Origin: Kineosporia sp. NBRC 101731
GTDB taxonomy: Bacteria > Actinomycetota > Actinomycetes > Actinomycetales > Kineosporiaceae
DNA: 47,896 nucleotides
Assembly (NCBI RefSeq): GCF_030269305.1
Contig: NZ_BSTC01000026.1
Location: forward strand, 1-47,896
Reading direction: 5' to 3'
In this document: positions 1 to 35,007 of the stretch, piece by piece
How positions within the stretch are numbered: position 1 is the first letter of the stretch
How the letters are laid out: each line of letters opens with the position of its first letter
The notes under the pieces: generated by a model
The model's database searches: none
What the model saw: the letters and a program-made list of their open reading frames with translations, nothing else
Told to the model about the DNA's origin: nothing
Translations under genes and position numbers: made by a program

Positions 1-216
1 GGAACCGAAGTGGAAAACCCGGGCAGACCGGGTCATCACTCACGCCCACGCCAGGAAATACCTGAAATCACGATCAGGAAATGACCGCACTCGGCCACTC
101 AAACCGGGTCGGCGGATCCGGGCTGAGATACCTTGCTCGCTGCAGTTGTCGGAGGGGTCAGCTCCTTGATGGCCCCGGCATTGAGGCGATTGCAGGTGCG
201 CCGTACGATCTTGATC

Positions 217-1311
217 ATGGGCGATAATGTCAAGCGGCGCCATCACACGGTTCCTAAGTTTCACCTGCGGAATTTTGCTTCCGAAAAGGAGCAGTTGACC
301 CAGCTAGATGTGGTGACAGGTCGCCAGATGACGGTGAACTTTGGTGACGCCACAGTGAGAAAGCATTTCTACACGATCGTTCTTCCCGACGGTACCCAAT
401 CACAGGCCTGGGAAGATCGACTCAGTGACCTTGAGGGTGAGATCGCGCCGGTCGTCAACAAAATCGTCAATGACCAAGTCTGGCTTCTCAGCGACCATGA
501 AAAAGACACCCTTTCTCTATGGATCGCGCTGCAATACATGCGCGGCCCCGACGCGCGTCGCCAGATGACGCAAATCGCGTCCATGGTCACGCGACTGCAA
601 GTCGGTATGGGAGGTATCGCCTACCTGCGGTACGCCATGGAGCGTGGTCTTGGTACAGAGGTGCCGGATGAGGTAGTGGAGCGAGCCTGGATCGATCTCA
701 CTGGGCCACCTGGGCCGCAGGTGACCGTTTCGGGAAACGATCACCTGAACATGATCGCTGCTTACGTTGAGCCCGCGAGGTTAATGATTCGCGATCGAAT
801 CTGGGGACGCATCAGATTTGACCGTAAATCCCTGGCCCTGGGCGACGTTCCAGTGACTCTGATAAGAGGGGACACCCCAGAGTCTCTGGAAGTTGGCCTG
901 GACAGCGCGCCATCCATCGCAGTGGCTCTTGGCCGTCACACCCTGCTCTGGCTGGATCTCCCCTCGGAGATGCGTGACCCCGACGCCAGCGATAAGACTT
1001 ATCGGAATCGTTTCCGCGATGCGGAACTTGCTCCTAGTACCAAGTTGGCGTCCGCGAATAATCTTGCGGCGGTTTTGCAGGCTGAAAGATTTGTCTATTT
1101 CCATACCGACGACGATCTCGCCCCGCGTGACTTTGAGTGGCCTCGTCCGGAACGGGTCCTGTCCGACCCCCGGACCGAAAATGATGTTAACCGCGAGCGA
1201 CCTTTACAGGACGTCCTGGATCAGATTGCGGGGCATCGAGATAACTCGGGAATGAGCCTGATAGCGGACTATATCTGGCCGATCCCCGGGTACTCGCCCC
1301 CCGTTGCCTAA
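217..1311 (+). CDS. DUF4238 domain protein
   Basis: A 364-residue protein whose N-terminus carries the DUF4238 signature, HHTVPKFHLRNFA, followed by a long helical region containing WEDRLSDLEGEI. The family has no settled biochemical role; members are scattered among accessory regions. I place the start at ATG 217 because homologues begin just before the HHxVP motif. ATG 169, with GGAGG at 151-155, is an in-frame alternative adding 16 residues, and a TTG at 133 is less likely. Codons are visibly richer in A/T at third positions than in the rest of the window, which suggests recent acquisition. The gene lies on the same side of tRNA-Leu as two recombinase genes, so it may be cargo of that element (inference). 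Confidence 0.75.
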   Translation: MGDNVKRRHHTVPKFHLRNFASEKEQLTQLDVVTGRQMTVNFGDATVRKHFYTIVLPDGTQSQAWEDRLSDLEGEIAPVVNKIVNDQVWLLSDHEKDTLSLWIALQYMRGPDARRQMTQIASMVTRLQVGMGGIAYLRYAMERGLGTEVPDEVVERAWIDLTGPPGPQVTVSGNDHLNMIAAYVEPARLMIRDRIWGRIRFDRKSLALGDVPVTLIRGDTPESLEVGLDSAPSIAVALGRHTLLWLDLPSEMRDPDASDKTYRNRFRDAELAPSTKLASANNLAAVLQAERFVYFHTDDDLAPRDFEWPRPERVLSDPRTENDVNRERPLQDVLDQIAGHRDNSGMSLIADYIWPIPGYSPPVA

Positions 1312-1691: not shown

Positions 1692-2219
1692 GTGTCGGAA
1701 CGAGCGGGGTTGGCGGGAGCGAACGGCCAGGACATGGGAGCGCCCTCGTCTCTGTCCATGGCAGGCGGCATAGCGGCGGACACTGCGCCGGTGAGTCGAT
1801 CGCTGGGGCTTCCGCTGCCAAATGTCAGTCTCGGCGGTGGGTCGGCGTCTACGTGGGCGTTCGCGGTGTCTCCGTTGGGAGCGAAAGGGCGCATCTCCGA
1901 TGCGTTCTGTCTGCGTGAATTGGGTTGGGCCTCTGGAACACTGATCACTGTTTCTGCGGCGGCCGGCGAGGTGAGGGTCTCGCGCGGTGACGGTGATGGT
2001 GGCGGCGCGGGGCACGGGCAGCAGATTGAGCGCAGTGGTCACCTTCGTTTGCTGTCCCTGGCGCAGCGCCTGGCTGGATTCCGTTCGGGTGATCGCCTTT
2101 TGATGGTGGCAGATCTACGAGCGGAGGTCTTGCGGGTTCTGCCAGCTTCGGTCCTGGCCCGCCTCGTCCCGGACTCTTCGAGGGCGGTCGGTACTGCGGC
2201 GTTGTGGGGGGTAGCGTGA
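1692..2219 (+). CDS. AbrB/SpoVT-like protein, left module
   Basis: A 175-residue protein whose C-terminal half reads like an AbrB-type swapped-hairpin fold: LRELGWASGT (residues about 73-82), later LRLLSLAQR and the FRSGDRLLM turn typical of such proteins. AbrB-like domains usually bind DNA as dimers, so a role as repressor or accessory factor for the adjoining recombinase is likely. The start is GTG 1692, six bases after AGGAG, which also makes its length match the right-hand paralogue (170 residues). Its stop overlaps the recombinase start as GTGA (2216-2219), indicating translational coupling. The N-terminal 60 residues are low in recognisable structure. Confidence 0.6.
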   Translation: MSERAGLAGANGQDMGAPSSLSMAGGIAADTAPVSRSLGLPLPNVSLGGGSASTWAFAVSPLGAKGRISDAFCLRELGWASGTLITVSAAAGEVRVSRGDGDGGGAGHGQQIERSGHLRLLSLAQRLAGFRSGDRLLMVADLRAEVLRVLPASVLARLVPDSSRAVGTAALWGVA

Positions 2220-3292
2220 GCGTGACAGAGAGTGCCATGGTCGGACCGTCGGCGACGGATCTGCTGATGTTGCAGCAGCTGATGTCCCGGATGGGGATCA
2301 CGGCCGATCAGCTCACAGGCCAGGAACTGGCCCCGGTGGCTGGTTCGGTGGTGGTTCCGACGTTCAGTGAGTACATCGACCGGGTCGCCGAGGTGGTCAC
2401 GCCGGGGACCCGGAAAGTGTATGGCTCGTACTGGAACCGAGTCCGGGCGGAATGGGGTGATCGACGGCTGGACGAGCCGACACCGCTCGACATCTCAGCG
2501 CTGGCCGAGTCGGTCCGTTCGAATGCGTTGGTCCGGCGCAACAGTCGCGGTGGCAGGTCCGCGGCGGAGCACCTGATTGCCTCACTACGCTGCCTGTACC
2601 GGTACGCGGTCGATGACCAACTGATCCGGGAGGACCGCAATCCCTCGGTGCGGGCCCGTCAGCCCCAGCGGCTGGCCTCGACCCGGCATGCCCTGCCCGA
2701 TGGCCAACTGGCGGCGCTGGTGCACCGGGCCGGGACGACGGGCAATGATCCGCAGCTGGATTCGTTGATCTTGCGTCTTCATCTGGAAACGGCGTGCCGC
2801 CGGGGTGGGGCGCTGGCGTTGCGGCCTCGGGATCTGGATGCGCGTCAGTGTTTGATCTTGTTGCGGGAGAAGCGTGAGACCGTTCGCTGGCAGCCGGTTT
2901 CGCCGGATCTGATGGCGGCGTTGCAGGAGCATCGGGATGCTCGTGGGGATGGTGATGATGAGGGGCAGCTGTTGCGGTATCGCAATCAGCGGCCTGTGAC
3001 TGCTCGCCGGTATGACCACCTGTTTGAGCGGGTGGGTCGGTACGAGCCGTGGGTGCGTACCCAGCAGATCAGCATTCACTGGTTACGGCATACGACGCTC
3101 ACGTGGGTCGAGCGGAACTTCGGCTACGCGATCGCTCGCGGCTACGCCGGCCACGAAGGCCGAAGCGATGCAGGCAGCACTGCGACGTACGTGCGCGCCG
3201 ACCCCACCGAGATCGCGGCCGCCCTAGCCGCCATGACCGGGCAGGCCCATCCGCTGGCAGATACCCGACCGGGGGTCGATGCCCGGTCATAG
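2216..3292 (+). CDS. Tyrosine recombinase/integrase, left module
   Basis: A 358-residue phage-integrase-type recombinase. An N-terminal SAM-like core-binding domain (TFSEYIDRV, GTRKVYGSYW) precedes the catalytic domain. The catalytic set is visible: Arg195 in CRRGG, the HxxR pair His288 and Arg291 in HWLRHT, His313 in AGHEG, and the nucleophile Tyr325 in TYVRA. The box I Glu found in many family members is Gly here. The start is GTG 2216, coupled to the AbrB-like gene. Long blocks such as LETACRRGGALAL and CLILLREK are shared with the oppositely oriented recombinase at 3352-4446, so the two are paralogues. The intact catalytic residues argue that the enzyme is active. Confidence 0.88.
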   Translation: MSVTESAMVGPSATDLLMLQQLMSRMGITADQLTGQELAPVAGSVVVPTFSEYIDRVAEVVTPGTRKVYGSYWNRVRAEWGDRRLDEPTPLDISALAESVRSNALVRRNSRGGRSAAEHLIASLRCLYRYAVDDQLIREDRNPSVRARQPQRLASTRHALPDGQLAALVHRAGTTGNDPQLDSLILRLHLETACRRGGALALRPRDLDARQCLILLREKRETVRWQPVSPDLMAALQEHRDARGDGDDEGQLLRYRNQRPVTARRYDHLFERVGRYEPWVRTQQISIHWLRHTTLTWVERNFGYAIARGYAGHEGRSDAGSTATYVRADPTEIAAALAAMTGQAHPLADTRPGVDARS

Positions 3293-3335
3293 AGGAGGGG
3301 GCCCCGTCCGTCGGACGGGCCCCTCCTCGGGTTTT
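3292..3335. terminator. Strong terminator between convergent recombinase genes
   Basis: GAGGAGGGG at 3292-3300 pairs with CCCCTCCTC at 3320-3328, with further pairing of GTCCG and CGGAC inside, followed by GGGTTTT (3329-3335). It sits exactly at the end of the left recombinase and 17 bp before the end of the right one, at the mirror axis of the two modules. The T-run suits transcription from the left. Confidence 0.8.
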
Positions 3336-3351
3336 GGCGTGAATCCTTACC

Positions 3352-4446
3352 TCATGAAGGTGTCGGCGCTTGGGGGTGGGCGAGGGGGTGGGGTTCTCCT
3401 GACAGGGAGGCGAGGGCCGTGGCTACTTCTTGCTGGGTGGCCCGGACGTATAAGGCGGTGACACCGTCGCCGCTGCGACCGCCGGTGTGTCCGGCGTATG
3501 CCTGTGCGACGGCGTACCCGTGGGTGCGTTCCACCCAGGTCAAGGTGGTGTGGCGCAGCCAGTGCGCGCTCACGCCCTGTGCGGCCACCCATGGCAGATG
3601 ACGCCCGATCCTTTCCCAGAGTGAGTTGTAACGCCGCCGGGTGATCGGGTTCCCGTTGCGTTGACGCAGCAATGGCCCGGTCCCTGAGGCGCCTCTTTCC
3701 TGAGCGTGGGCCAGTAAGTGCCGCATAAGGGTCGGCGAGACGGGCTGCCACCTGCTCGTTTCTCCCTTCTCGCGAAGAAGGATGAGGCATTGCTGTTCGT
3801 CCAGGTCGCACACGCGAAGTGCCAGAGCACCCCCTCGCCGACATGCGGTCTCGGTGTGCAGGCGGATGAGCAGGGAATCCAGCACCGGATCATTGCCGGT
3901 GCTGGCGGCAATCTGATTGATCTCCGCCAACCGATCCCCGCCAACAGCCTGACGCATCGACGTCGGACGACGCGGCTTCTCCACCCGTAAGGCCGGGTTG
4001 TCAGTCACCAGGCCATCGGCAATCGCGTGTCGGTACAAGCAGCGCAACGCCGCAATGAAGTGTTCACCGGTCAATTGCCCACCGCGGCCATTGCGGCGAA
4101 CAACCCGCTGAGTACGCAACTGACCACTGAGCTGCTGAATCTGCGAGGGCGTCGGCTCATCGATGCGCCGGTCGGCCCAGTGCTCCAGCAACCGCTTCCA
4201 ATATGTGCTGTACACACGCCGGGTTCCCTCGCTCACCGCTCCCGACACCACCGGCACGTATGCCGCGAACGTCGGCGCCGGCGATCTGGACGCCGTCGTC
4301 GCTCCAGTGGCAGCGCTGGGGTCCGTCGTCAGGAGGTCCTCGACCCGGATGCCCATGCGTCCCAAGAGCAGACGGGCGGCTTCCAGCTCAGGAAGCGATG
4401 GGGCCGTACCAGCATCTGGTGCCGGATTCTGCTGAGCATCGCTCAT
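3352..4446 (-). CDS. Tyrosine recombinase/integrase, right module
   Basis: A 364-residue tyrosine recombinase on the minus strand, with the same layout as the left copy: a short helical N-terminus (LLLGRMGI), a core-binding domain (GTRRVYSTYW), then a catalytic domain with Arg in CRRGG, His and Arg in HWLRHT, His in AGHTG and Tyr in LYVRA. The start is ATG 4446, overlapping the upstream AbrB-like gene as ATGA (4443-4446). The two recombinases are clearly homologous over their full length but have diverged at many positions. This is therefore an old duplication, or independent capture of related modules, rather than a recent inverted copy. Confidence 0.88.
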   Translation of the reverse strand: MSDAQQNPAPDAGTAPSLPELEAARLLLGRMGIRVEDLLTTDPSAATGATTASRSPAPTFAAYVPVVSGAVSEGTRRVYSTYWKRLLEHWADRRIDEPTPSQIQQLSGQLRTQRVVRRNGRGGQLTGEHFIAALRCLYRHAIADGLVTDNPALRVEKPRRPTSMRQAVGGDRLAEINQIAASTGNDPVLDSLLIRLHTETACRRGGALALRVCDLDEQQCLILLREKGETSRWQPVSPTLMRHLLAHAQERGASGTGPLLRQRNGNPITRRRYNSLWERIGRHLPWVAAQGVSAHWLRHTTLTWVERTHGYAVAQAYAGHTGGRSGDGVTALYVRATQQEVATALASLSGEPHPLAHPQAPTPS

Positions 4447-4955
4447 CGGTCGTCGCCTCCGCCCCATACCCGGGCATGAGCGGCTGCCGTCATGGTGGTC
4501 AGGGATGCGGGGGGATGGATCACGAGCCACCCGCCTGAAAGGTCACCGACCAACAGGACCCGGTCCCCGGGAGTCAGTTGGCACCAGCGGCGAGCCACCG
4601 CCGGCAACAGCAAGAATCCCTGTCCGCTGACCTGGAACACCCCGCGTAGGTCAGCGGTCACCAGGATCAGCCCGGCATGCTCGGACATGTGGATACGGGT
4701 ACCCGGAGTCCATCCCAGGCGCTGAACGATCTCTCGCTCACCCAGGCGACCGGTGACACTCAGCGTGGCGAAACCGTAGACCAGATCCGGAGAAGGATCA
4801 GCGCTCGGGATCAACGGGATGGGCAAGGCCTTTGCCCCGCCAAAGGCGATTCGGCTGGCGTTGCCCTGGCCAACACGGGGAGGGACAAGACCGCTGATGG
4901 CCGGAACGGTGGGTTTCAGATTAGGCACCTGAACCACCGCCCGGCCCTTGAACAC
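4443..4955 (-). CDS. AbrB/SpoVT-like protein, right module
   Basis: A 170-residue protein paralogous to the one at 1692-2219. The second half carries the AbrB-like pattern: REIVQRLGWTPGTR, then FLLLPAVARRW and LTPGDRVLLVGD. The start is taken as GTG 4955, which gives nearly the same length as the left paralogue; the ribosome site (GGTGA) is weak. The gene ends in an ATGA overlap with its recombinase. The 92 bases between it and the tRNA hold several inverted repeats, the obvious place for binding by it or by the recombinase (inference). It could regulate its own two-gene operon or act as a directionality factor. Confidence 0.6.
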   Translation of the reverse strand: MFKGRAVVQVPNLKPTVPAISGLVPPRVGQGNASRIAFGGAKALPIPLIPSADPSPDLVYGFATLSVTGRLGEREIVQRLGWTPGTRIHMSEHAGLILVTADLRGVFQVSGQGFLLLPAVARRWCQLTPGDRVLLVGDLSGGWLVIHPPASLTTMTAAAHARVWGGGDDR

Positions 4956-4988
4956 TCACCCAGAAAAGGGCTGTTCCCGCTGGCCGAA

Positions 4989-5038
4989 CCGGACATATCC
5001 GGATCGAAGACTGTACCGCTGGGCAGTACATCGATGTA
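4989..5038. promoter_or_regulatory. Cluster of inverted repeats next to the tRNA 3' end
   Basis: Three overlapping symmetries lie in 50 bases: CCGGA-CATA-TCCGG (4989-5002), TGTAC (5012-5016) facing GTACA (5026-5030), and the perfect palindrome TACATCGATGTA (5027-5038). The cluster ends 9 bp from the 3' end of tRNA-Leu and lies upstream of the minus-strand AbrB-like gene. It could be the promoter/operator, or recombinase arm and core sites. Confidence 0.45.
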
Positions 5039-5047
5039 ACGCTTTTG

Positions 5048-5132
5048 TGTCCGAGGGGGGACTTGAACCCCCACGCCCGATAAAGGGCACTAGCACCTCA
5101 AGCTAGCGCGTCTGCCATTCCGCCACTCGGAC
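5048..5132 (-). tRNA. tRNA-Leu (GAG anticodon)
   Basis: Read on the minus strand, the acceptor arms GTCCGAG and CTCGGAC pair, with A as discriminator at 5048. The T arm is GGGGT-TCAAGTC-CCCCC, the anticodon loop contains TTGAGGT (anticodon GAG), and a long variable arm (GCCC...GGGC) marks a type II leucine tRNA. CCA is not encoded. Its 3' end points toward the recombinase modules, the usual geometry for integration into a tRNA gene. Confidence 0.95.
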
Positions 5133-8688: not shown

Positions 8689-9165
8689 TCAGGCCGCCGG
8701 GGTGGGCTCAGGTGTGGGGGTGGTGGGTTCGATCTCGGGCTCGGATTCCTTGCCCTCGGCTGCGATCCGGGTCACGATAGTGGCTTCTGCGCTCTGCCGG
8801 GTCCGGACGTTGATGTGATCGCCGGTCTGAAGCTGGGCCAGGGTGACGCCTACGCCGTTGCGGGTGATCTTGACGCTGTCCGGCACGTTCAGGACCAGGG
8901 ACGTGTTGCGCACCTTCTTGTCACGTCCACCACGGACGGCGACGGTGATCGTCCCCGCTGCCGGGTCCACCGCACTCAACTTTCCCTTGTACACCACAGT
9001 CTTCGCCTTGACCGGCTTCACCGGCTTGGTGACCTTGGAGTCGTCGCCCGGGTGAACCTTCGTTGTCGTCGCCCGGGGCAGGGCCGCTGCCGAGGCTGCG
9101 GTACCCCCGGCCACGGGCAGTACCAGGGCCACGGTCAGAGCCAGGGCGGCGGAACGGTGGTTCAT
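8689..9165 (-). CDS. Secreted protein of unknown function under a riboswitch
   Basis: A 158-residue exported protein. The N-terminal signal peptide (residues 1 to about 27, ending ASAAA) is followed by a Lys/Val-rich stretch, then a beta-rich core of about 80 residues (VYKGKLSAVDPAAGTITVAV, LAQLQTGDHINVRT) resembling the OB-like DUF5666-type fold, and a Pro/Thr/Glu tail. It has no catalytic motif and no sortase or anchor signal. Translation starts at ATG 9165 after an AAGGA site that lies inside the closing stem of the c-di-GMP-I riboswitch, so output should follow cellular c-di-GMP. A matrix or surface role would fit that control but is inference. Confidence 0.75.
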   Translation of the reverse strand: MNHRSAALALTVALVLPVAGGTAASAAALPRATTTKVHPGDDSKVTKPVKPVKAKTVVYKGKLSAVDPAAGTITVAVRGGRDKKVRNTSLVLNVPDSVKITRNGVGVTLAQLQTGDHINVRTRQSAEATIVTRIAAEGKESEPEIEPTTPTPEPTPAA

Positions 9166-9170
9166 GCATC

Positions 9171-9264
9171 AGTCCTTCGGTAACCGGGCCACCTCCCCCT
9201 CGGACGGGGAGAGGTCCCTGGGCTTTGCGTCCCCGGTTCGCACCGGGTTTGCCTGGTCCAGACC
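9171..9264 (-). promoter_or_regulatory. Cyclic di-GMP-I (GEMM) riboswitch
   Basis: On the minus strand the aptamer landmarks occur in order: CCAGGCAAACC, a hairpin closed by CCGGT/ACCGG with a GCGA (GNRA) loop, GGGGACGCAAAGCC, a variable second hairpin (CTCTCCCC/GGGGGAG), then CCGGTTACCGAAGG. These match the class I c-di-GMP aptamer. The closing stem can form between GGTCT (9260-9264) and GGACT (9171-9175), which covers the ribosome site AAGGA of the secreted protein gene. This suggests translational control with ligand binding hiding the site, although the direction of the switch is inference. Confidence 0.88.

Positions 9265-31959: not shown

Positions 31960-35007
<3,048 letters not shown>

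What the first reader, a model, noticed from the sequence alone, without database searches (positions are those of the whole stretch)
1692..4955. Mirror-image pair of AbrB-like + tyrosine recombinase modules
Two operons of almost equal length (1601 and 1604 bp) face each other across one terminator. Each has an AbrB-like gene overlapping a tyrosine recombinase as GTGA or ATGA, and the recombinases share long catalytic blocks with all active-site residues intact. Known multi-recombinase elements (Tn554 type, recombinase-in-trio) place their genes in one direction; a convergent duplicated pair with AbrB partners is not an arrangement I know. The two could form a heteromeric integrase, one for each end, or one for insertion and one for excision.
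Basis: partly seen in the sequence, partly recalled or inferred. Interest (0 to 1): 0.75.

Follow-up and report, generated by a model that had tools for sequence, protein, structure and literature searches.

The report
Two-integrase genomic island of actinobacteria
The mirror-image gene pair is the end of a mobile DNA island inserted at a leucine tRNA gene; relatives are common in two families of soil actinobacteria, and many carry two different, apparently intact DNA-cutting integrases, each with its own DNA-binding partner, where one would normally be enough.

Summary
Two AbrB-like + tyrosine-recombinase operons (1692-3292 +, 3352-4955 -) face each other across 59 bp. The right one ('R') starts 91 bp from the 3' end of tRNA-Leu(GAG) (5047-5132 -). 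In 4 congeners the DNA beyond that tRNA is different and homology stops at the tRNA 3' end, so the pair is one end of an inserted island; it runs off the contig at position 1 and its far end was not found.

The pair is not a one-off. In a 163-row tree the left copy falls in an 'X' clade (51 rows, SH-aLRT 98). No X row has the tRNA or att core upstream (0 of 51), against 76 of 112 other rows. R and X distances correlate (Mantel r 0.53; 0 of 5000 permutations; host phylogeny not controlled). X lies downstream of R: 18 pairs convergent, 18 co-directional, none divergent. In three loci the convergent partner is R's own sister, so the mirror layout seems to recur. Relatives occur in 108 of 300 and 104 of 327 genomes of two families.

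Best reading: R is the tRNA-Leu integrase; X is a second recombinase acting in trans. What X does is not shown. 'One for each end' is not supported.

The parts
1692..2219 (+). AbrB-like (MraZ-like, double-hairpin) partner of the X recombinase; the frame is open upstream to 1488, so the start is uncertain
2216..3292 (+). X-clade tyrosine recombinase (P0002), start overlaps the partner's stop as GTGA
3292..3328 (.). strong GC-rich hairpin (16 pairs, one 2-nt bulge) between the two stop codons, probable shared terminator, no T-run
3352..4446 (-). R-type tyrosine recombinase (P0003), tRNA-proximal, the probable integrase; ATGA overlap with its partner
4443..4955 (-). AbrB-like partner of the R recombinase (P0004)
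4956..5046 (-). 91 bp between tRNA 3' end and the R operon; many relatives have here a ~22-30-nt palindrome (GTGxTCAAG..CTTGAxCAC) about 30 nt from the tRNA; the window has a weaker inverted repeat about 40-60 nt from the tRNA end
5047..5132 (-). tRNA-Leu(GAG), the attachment site; its 3' end is the island/chromosome junction
169..1311 (+). DUF4238 protein, presumed island cargo (weak match to a PADLOC DUF4238 model, E 8e-4)

Best explanation
The pair is the recombination module of a genomic-island family that inserts at the 3' end of tRNA-Leu(GAG) in actinobacteria. SHOWN by comparison: the R operon lies next to the tRNA (tRNA end about 0.5-0.8 kb upstream of the recombinase match in relatives); in this genome the insertion starts exactly at the tRNA 3' end; in a minority of relatives a second copy of the tRNA 3' end is found 11-267 kb away; X is a separate clade of recombinases with the catalytic residues in place, lying downstream of R. 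INFERRED: R cuts and joins the tRNA site (integration, and excision as a circle); its AbrB-like partner binds the palindrome beside the site, regulating the operon and/or shaping the recombination complex; X with its own partner acts in trans on the same element, most likely as the second subunit type of a mixed recombinase complex or as an excision-favouring version of R. The convergent layout gives two separately controlled operons sharing one transcription stop, and the gap between them can also take cargo.
For: R next to the site: 60 of 112 non-X rows have tRNA-Leu upstream, 11 a direct and 5 an inverted att core; 0 of 51 X rows have either (Fisher p 7e-19, nominal because rows are related). 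Junction: window homology to 4 congeners stops at the tRNA 3' end, apart from 13 further nt at 90% overall in one of them. Second att copies: 7 pairs compared, matched stretches of 25-40 nt with 22-35 identities, placed. X clade: 51 rows, SH-aLRT 98; 38 of 38 X rows one clade, bootstrap 89 / SH-aLRT 94, in a careful tree of 78 rows. Catalytic residues in all 51 X rows. Co-divergence: Mantel r 0.53, 0 of 5000 permutations; nearest neighbours agree in 16 of 39. Upstream partner ORF in 159 of 163 rows, NTGA overlap in 108; X partners group too, 48 of 49 X with 4 others, but with SH-aLRT only 76. Inverted repeat after the tRNA in 50 of 62 R sites against 11% of shuffles; none conserved upstream of X (46 of 96 windows against 40% of shuffles).
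Against: No experiment; X's role is inference. Some genomes have R without X (at least 4 of 49). 36 of 112 non-X rows have no att core found upstream. A second core copy on the same contig and strand within 300 kb was seen in only 17 of 78 genomes (8 of 35, 9 of 43), at up to 1 mismatch; contig breaks may hide others. Tree rows had to have a long open match, so broken copies were left out beforehand and 'intact in all rows' is partly by selection; searches list many fragments. Co-divergence could partly follow host phylogeny. In the window genome no second att copy was found, and the congeners' flank was not found (a search without a positive control), so the far end is unknown. R and X upstream regions share no motif.
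Confidence: 0.6

Rival explanations
1. Heteromeric integrase proper: R and X each bind one half-site of the core, as XerC and XerD do at dif (recalled), and both are needed whenever X is present.
For: Both keep the catalytic residues, co-diverge, and each keeps its own partner. Best NCBIfam models are XerC/XerA/XerD, far below their cut-offs, and the only solved structure matched is XerA (E 7e-4).
Against: R occurs without X in at least 4 of 49 genomes, so R can presumably work alone.
Confidence: 0.3
2. Division of labour: R integrates, X (with its AbrB partner) excises or controls direction, replacing a small excisionase.
For: X lies away from the att site in its own operon, so it could be switched on separately; R's palindrome is not seen upstream of X.
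Against: Directionality factors are usually small DNA-binding proteins (recalled), not a second intact recombinase; no small excisionase gene was searched for, so its absence is not shown.
Confidence: 0.25
3. X is the integrase of a second element that inserted into or merged with the R island; pairs are tandem or composite leftovers.
For: Tandem islands exist: G1241 has two att-R-X units in a row, G017 a second att and the start of another module; X is 37-255 kb from R and in the same direction in 13 of 36 same-contig pairs (coordinates).
Against: 0 of 51 X rows have an att core upstream; X co-diverges with R; 9 of 36 pairs abut within 301 bp, all convergent.
Confidence: 0.2
4. X is an inverted duplicate of R that drifts or is converted by R, without its own function.
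For: In three loci the convergent partner is R's own nearest relative: L038 74% and L036/L039 85% identical (sisters), L022 70% (sister in the 78-row tree; identities and placement).
Against: The main X clade is deep and keeps the catalytic residues in 51 of 51 rows, though broken copies were left out before the tree.
Confidence: 0.1
5. Chance juxtaposition in one strain.
For: None of the 12 other genomes of its family and only 1 other of 396 in its order sample has a match.
Against: The same pair type recurs in genera of other families.
Confidence: 0.02

Closest known systems
Actinomycete integrative and conjugative elements (AICEs, pSAM2 type; PMC3218068, passages read)
   Same: mostly tyrosine integrases inserted at the 3' end of a tRNA gene; elements sharing a site can form tandem arrays
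   Different: [quoted passage not shown] here two recombinases, each with an AbrB-like partner. Conjugation genes were not looked for systematically
GInt islands (ginABCD; PMC5385486, passages read)
   Same: island with several recombinases and a small partner protein, variable cargo
   Different: GInt genes form one operon at one end, with three putative integrases; here two opposed two-gene operons
Strand-biased circularizing elements (PMC10214605, passages read) and Tn554 (named there, otherwise recalled)
   Same: two recombinases with the catalytic motif in one element
   Different: intA-tfp-intB in one operon at the left end, in Gammaproteobacteria; other accessory proteins and sites
RIT elements (recombinase in trio; cited in PMC8138268 and PMC10214605, otherwise recalled)
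   Same: several tyrosine recombinases together
   Different: three in one direction, no AbrB-like partner (recalled)
XerC/XerD (recalled)
   Same: two related recombinases that work as a pair; nearest sequence models
   Different: host chromosome maintenance genes, not island-borne, no AbrB-like partner

Membership tests
tRNA-targeted genomic island with tyrosine integrase | integrase gene beside a tRNA 3' end | tested here: met
   window R operon 91 bp from tRNA-Leu; tRNA upstream in 60 of 112 non-X rows
tRNA-targeted genomic island with tyrosine integrase | insertion absent in close relatives, junction at the tRNA 3' end | tested here: met
   4 congeners share another flank, homology ends at the tRNA 3' end; a fifth (G006) differs from both
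tRNA-targeted genomic island with tyrosine integrase | direct repeat of the tRNA 3' end at the far end | tested here: inconclusive
   compared and present in 7 relatives; not found in the window genome, whose island runs off the contig, and seen in only 17 of 78 genomes searched
tRNA-targeted genomic island with tyrosine integrase | excision as a circle | tested here: inconclusive
   G057 C35 and C93 show divergent modules around one att core, and C35's ends overlap by 79 nt, but C93 shares the same overlap, so circle and tandem array cannot be told apart
GInt / SE / Tn554 / RIT | co-directional operon of two or three recombinases | tested here: not met
   the two recombinase operons converge in the window and in 17 other compiled pairs; in 18 pairs they point the same way but as separate operons, most of them far apart
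AICE | replication initiator and FtsK-like transfer gene on the element | not tested
   only 22 proteins were scanned with Pfam, 21 of them inside islands; none matched these, but most island genes were not scanned
AbrB / MraZ DNA-binding proteins (partner gene) | swapped-hairpin AbrB fold | tested here: met
   by sequence in 24 of 47 members only, by fold for the right window partner

The most novel reading that the evidence does not exclude
A widespread class of actinobacterial islands that encodes two obligately paired recombinases with dedicated AbrB/MraZ-type partners, assembling a mixed complex at a tRNA site; the mirror-image layout itself has been re-created several times by inverted duplication, because opposed, separately controlled integrase operons give the island a two-key lock on mobility.
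Probability: 0.25. Interest if true: 0.8.

Novelty: new variant of a known kind. Interest (0 to 1): 0.6.

Why it matters
About a third of the sampled genomes of two actinobacterial families carry this recombinase family (108 of 300; 104 of 327), yet the ten literature searches listed nothing on an AbrB-partnered pair. It would add a two-recombinase, AbrB-partnered type to the mobile islands of actinobacteria, with some defence-gene matches (GajA and others) in the gap between the two recombinases, and could offer a new tRNA-Leu integration system for strain engineering.

Tried and rejected
Phage, plasmid and viral homes: no relative in plasmids or viral contigs, only four Gordonia phage records at about 29% identity. 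Chance juxtaposition: rejected by recurrence. 'X marks the other end': an early idea after (G061 has X 262 bp from the second att core); dropped because only 4 of 51 X rows have a core within 450 bp downstream, three of them beside a full tRNA-Leu. 'The island interior flips often': considered because X is convergent in 18 and co-directional in 18 pairs; the orientations looked largely consistent within X subclades, which I judged by eye and did not count, so I do not claim a switch. A shared motif upstream of R and X: a few pairs (for example L049/L088) scored above the best of 8 shuffles, most did not. Common chromosomal gene beyond far X copies: none seen among the largest groups printed. 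Far end of the window's island: not found. Host-phylogeny control of the co-divergence: not done. The second structure prediction and the two remaining fold searches were not used. Sequence-only PDB search: one weak hit, XerA.

Dropped before counts: trees used rows with at least 285 aligned profile positions and score over 370, and left out L104p1735, giving 163 of 181 unique modules. The 39 R-X pairs were compiled by hand, pairing X with an R-side row that was not always its nearest match; 3 of the 39 are on different contigs, pairs with a partial R (G032, G1221, G1369) were left out, and one (G028, L022) has a partner that fell outside the X clade. Spacings are between profile matches, not stop codons. 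The first look scored only 5 or 6 candidates per genome, so matches per genome are lower bounds; match lists were cut.
Full report
What is in the window. The two operons are as described: AbrB-like 1692-2219 and recombinase 2216-3292 on +, recombinase 3352-4446 and AbrB-like 4443-4955 on -. The recombinases are 52% identical over 348 aa; the partners 29% over 134 aa. A strong GC-rich hairpin with one small bulge lies in the 59-bp gap, without the T-run a simple terminator scan asks for. Two facts change the picture: tRNA-Leu(GAG) at 5047-5132 (-) ends 91 bp from the right operon, and the window is a whole contig, so position 1 is a contig end.

It is an island end. Five congeners were searched with the tRNA and its chromosomal side. 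In four (G005, G007, G008, G009) the sequence after the tRNA 3' end is a shared flank; the window aligns with them through the tRNA's last base and then stops, except for 13 further nt in the alignment with G008 (90% overall). The fifth, G006, has yet another sequence there. So DNA was inserted at the tRNA 3' end in the window genome. The congeners' flank was not found elsewhere in the window genome (no positive control), nor a second core copy with up to 1 mismatch, so the far end is unknown. None of the 12 other genomes of its family has the recombinases at E <= 1e-30.

The family elsewhere. A scan of genome contigs gave 68 loci whose titles name mainly Amycolatopsis, Lentzea, Nocardia, Micromonospora, Actinoplanes, Dactylosporangium, Saccharopolyspora and related genera. 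Genome samples: 4 of 394 in the class, 2 of 396 in the order (own genome included in both), 26 of 401 in the family of G092, all 26 in one genus, 108 of 300 in the family of Micromonospora saelicesensis (all at E <= 1e-50) and 104 of 327 in the family of Amycolatopsis acididurans (E <= 1e-100). These count both recombinase types and their near relatives.

Two clades. In a 163-row tree the window's left recombinase lies in a clade of 51 rows, SH-aLRT 98; a slower tree of 78 paired rows also gives one clade of 38 X rows, bootstrap 89 / SH-aLRT 94. I call it X, the rest R; R is what is left, not a tested clade, and it is diverse. The tRNA-Leu or an att core lies upstream in 76 of 112 non-X rows (60 tRNA, 11 direct core, 5 inverted core) and in 0 of 51 X rows. 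Both groups keep the catalytic residues: R, K, H and R of H-x-x-R in all 112 and 51 rows; the Y and the second H in 111 of 112 (the other gapped) and 51 of 51. Rows had to be long and open to enter the tree, so broken copies were excluded first. An upstream partner ORF is present in 159 of 163 rows, with an NTGA start-stop overlap in 108; 149 of 157 partner proteins are matched by a two-round profile started from the window's right partner. Partner and recombinase travel together: 48 of 49 X partners group, with 4 non-X rows, though with SH-aLRT only 76.

Where X sits. From hit coordinates I compiled 39 R-X pairs: 18 convergent, 18 in the same direction, 3 on different contigs, none divergent. 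Convergent ones are close: 9 within 301 bp (the window at 66 bp between matches), all within 24 kb. Of the co-directional ones, 5 are within 9 kb and 13 are 37-255 kb away. One search lists six more opposite-facing neighbours within 10 kb by coordinates alone (G1464, G1504, G1528, G1555, and two in G1535), and also three same-direction neighbours within 25 kb (G1703, G1455, G1628). R and X distances correlate (Mantel r 0.53, 0 of 5000 permutations reach it; nearest neighbours agree in 16 of 39), without a host-phylogeny control. At least 4 of 49 genomes have a single match, on the R side.

The mirror layout recurs. In L038 (74% identical) and L036/L039 (85%), the convergent partner is the sister of R in the same genome; in L022 (70%) it is the sister in the careful 78-row tree, though quick trees placed it at the base of X or in an unresolved fork outside X. 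L034 and L078 are further convergent pairs outside the X clade. Either inverted duplication happened repeatedly or the two copies exchange sequence. I regard this as the most surprising observation.

Attachment sites. Copies of the tRNA 3' core with up to one mismatch were sought in 35 and 43 genomes. Two or more on one contig and strand, within 300 kb, were seen in 8 of 35 and 9 of 43; in the other genomes no second copy was seen under these terms. Seven tRNA/second-copy pairs compared share 25-40 nt stretches with 22-35 identities; distances run from 11 kb (G017) and 18 kb (G1404) over 42 kb (G061) to 258 kb (G1241); G028 and G1280 give 176 and 267 kb by pattern position only. About 30 nt from the tRNA end, many R sites carry a palindrome of the form GTGxTCAAG..CTTGAxCAC: 50 of 62 R sites have an inverted repeat under the criterion, against 11% of shuffles; some of the 50 are other inverted repeats, as in the window. 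No such element is conserved upstream of X.

The partner protein. Predicted from an alignment of 47 family members, the window's right partner has two beta-alpha-beta-beta halves and is closest to MraZ (E 0.002, probability 1.00; nothing at E <= 0.001). So 'AbrB-like' is right, more exactly a double, MraZ-like form.

Cargo. In the Pseudonocardia MAG island (G017) a GajA-like gene (PADLOC E 1e-175) lies between R and X. Gaps in other islands hold matches to TmtA (L074, E 1e-265) and LeoBC (L137, E 2e-51) and to DUF4238 (L131), and the window's neighbour is a DUF4238 gene. Other genes gave transposases, TPR, RHS/Hint or NucA-like domains, weak matches or none. Only 23 proteins were scanned in all, one of them outside the islands, so defence enrichment is a lead, not a result.

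Mechanism. Shown: site, junction, clade split, catalytic residues in place, correlated divergence. Inferred: that R does the integration, that the palindrome is the AbrB-like protein's site, and that X acts on the same element. Which of mixed complex or excision role applies cannot be told from sequence.

Literature. Ten full-text searches listed no title or abstract start on AbrB-partnered tyrosine recombinases; three of them returned no paper at all. 'AbrB' does not occur in the main text of the four papers I looked into by passages (PMC8138268, PMC5385486, PMC10214605, PMC3218068). Subscription papers are mostly not held, so this is weak evidence of novelty. In the passages read, GInt and SE elements keep their recombinases in one operon.

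Noticed in passing
window 9176-9263 (-): c-di-GMP-I riboswitch (Rfam 60 bits) directly upstream of the ORF 8689-9165 (-), which by eye begins with a signal-peptide-like stretch.
   Followed up: partly
window 33591-33684 (+): ARAGORN reports a 94-nt tRNA-Thr(GGT) that Rfam's tRNA model does not report; it lies within a 1015-aa ORF and is probably a false call.
   Followed up: no
L056 and L104 (G057 contigs C93 and C35): Actinoplanes subtropicus: two modules diverge from one att core without a tRNA, as expected for an excised circle or a tandem junction; C35 (85 kb) has ends overlapping by 79 nt, shared with C93.
   Followed up: partly
L165, L167, L171: X recombinase lies next to a complete tRNA-Leu, pointing at it, about 190-250 bp away, with no R between.
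   Followed up: partly
L102, L103, L107, L060: Nocardia and Saccharothrix loci with two same-direction modules within about 0.5-1 kb (those of L060 are broken into pieces), a different doubling of the module.
   Followed up: no
G1535 C1:6366946-6384000: By coordinates, two convergent pairs in a row (7.4 kb and 2.6 kb gaps) with a 3-kb divergent junction between them.
   Followed up: no
L042, L043, L055, L079, L108: In these loci (Nocardia by title or genus code) the module sits at tRNA-Leu with anticodon TAG instead of GAG.
   Followed up: partly
L191:30-6905 (+): The 18-kb G1404 island carries a 2291-aa RHS-repeat protein with a pretoxin Hint domain.
   Followed up: no
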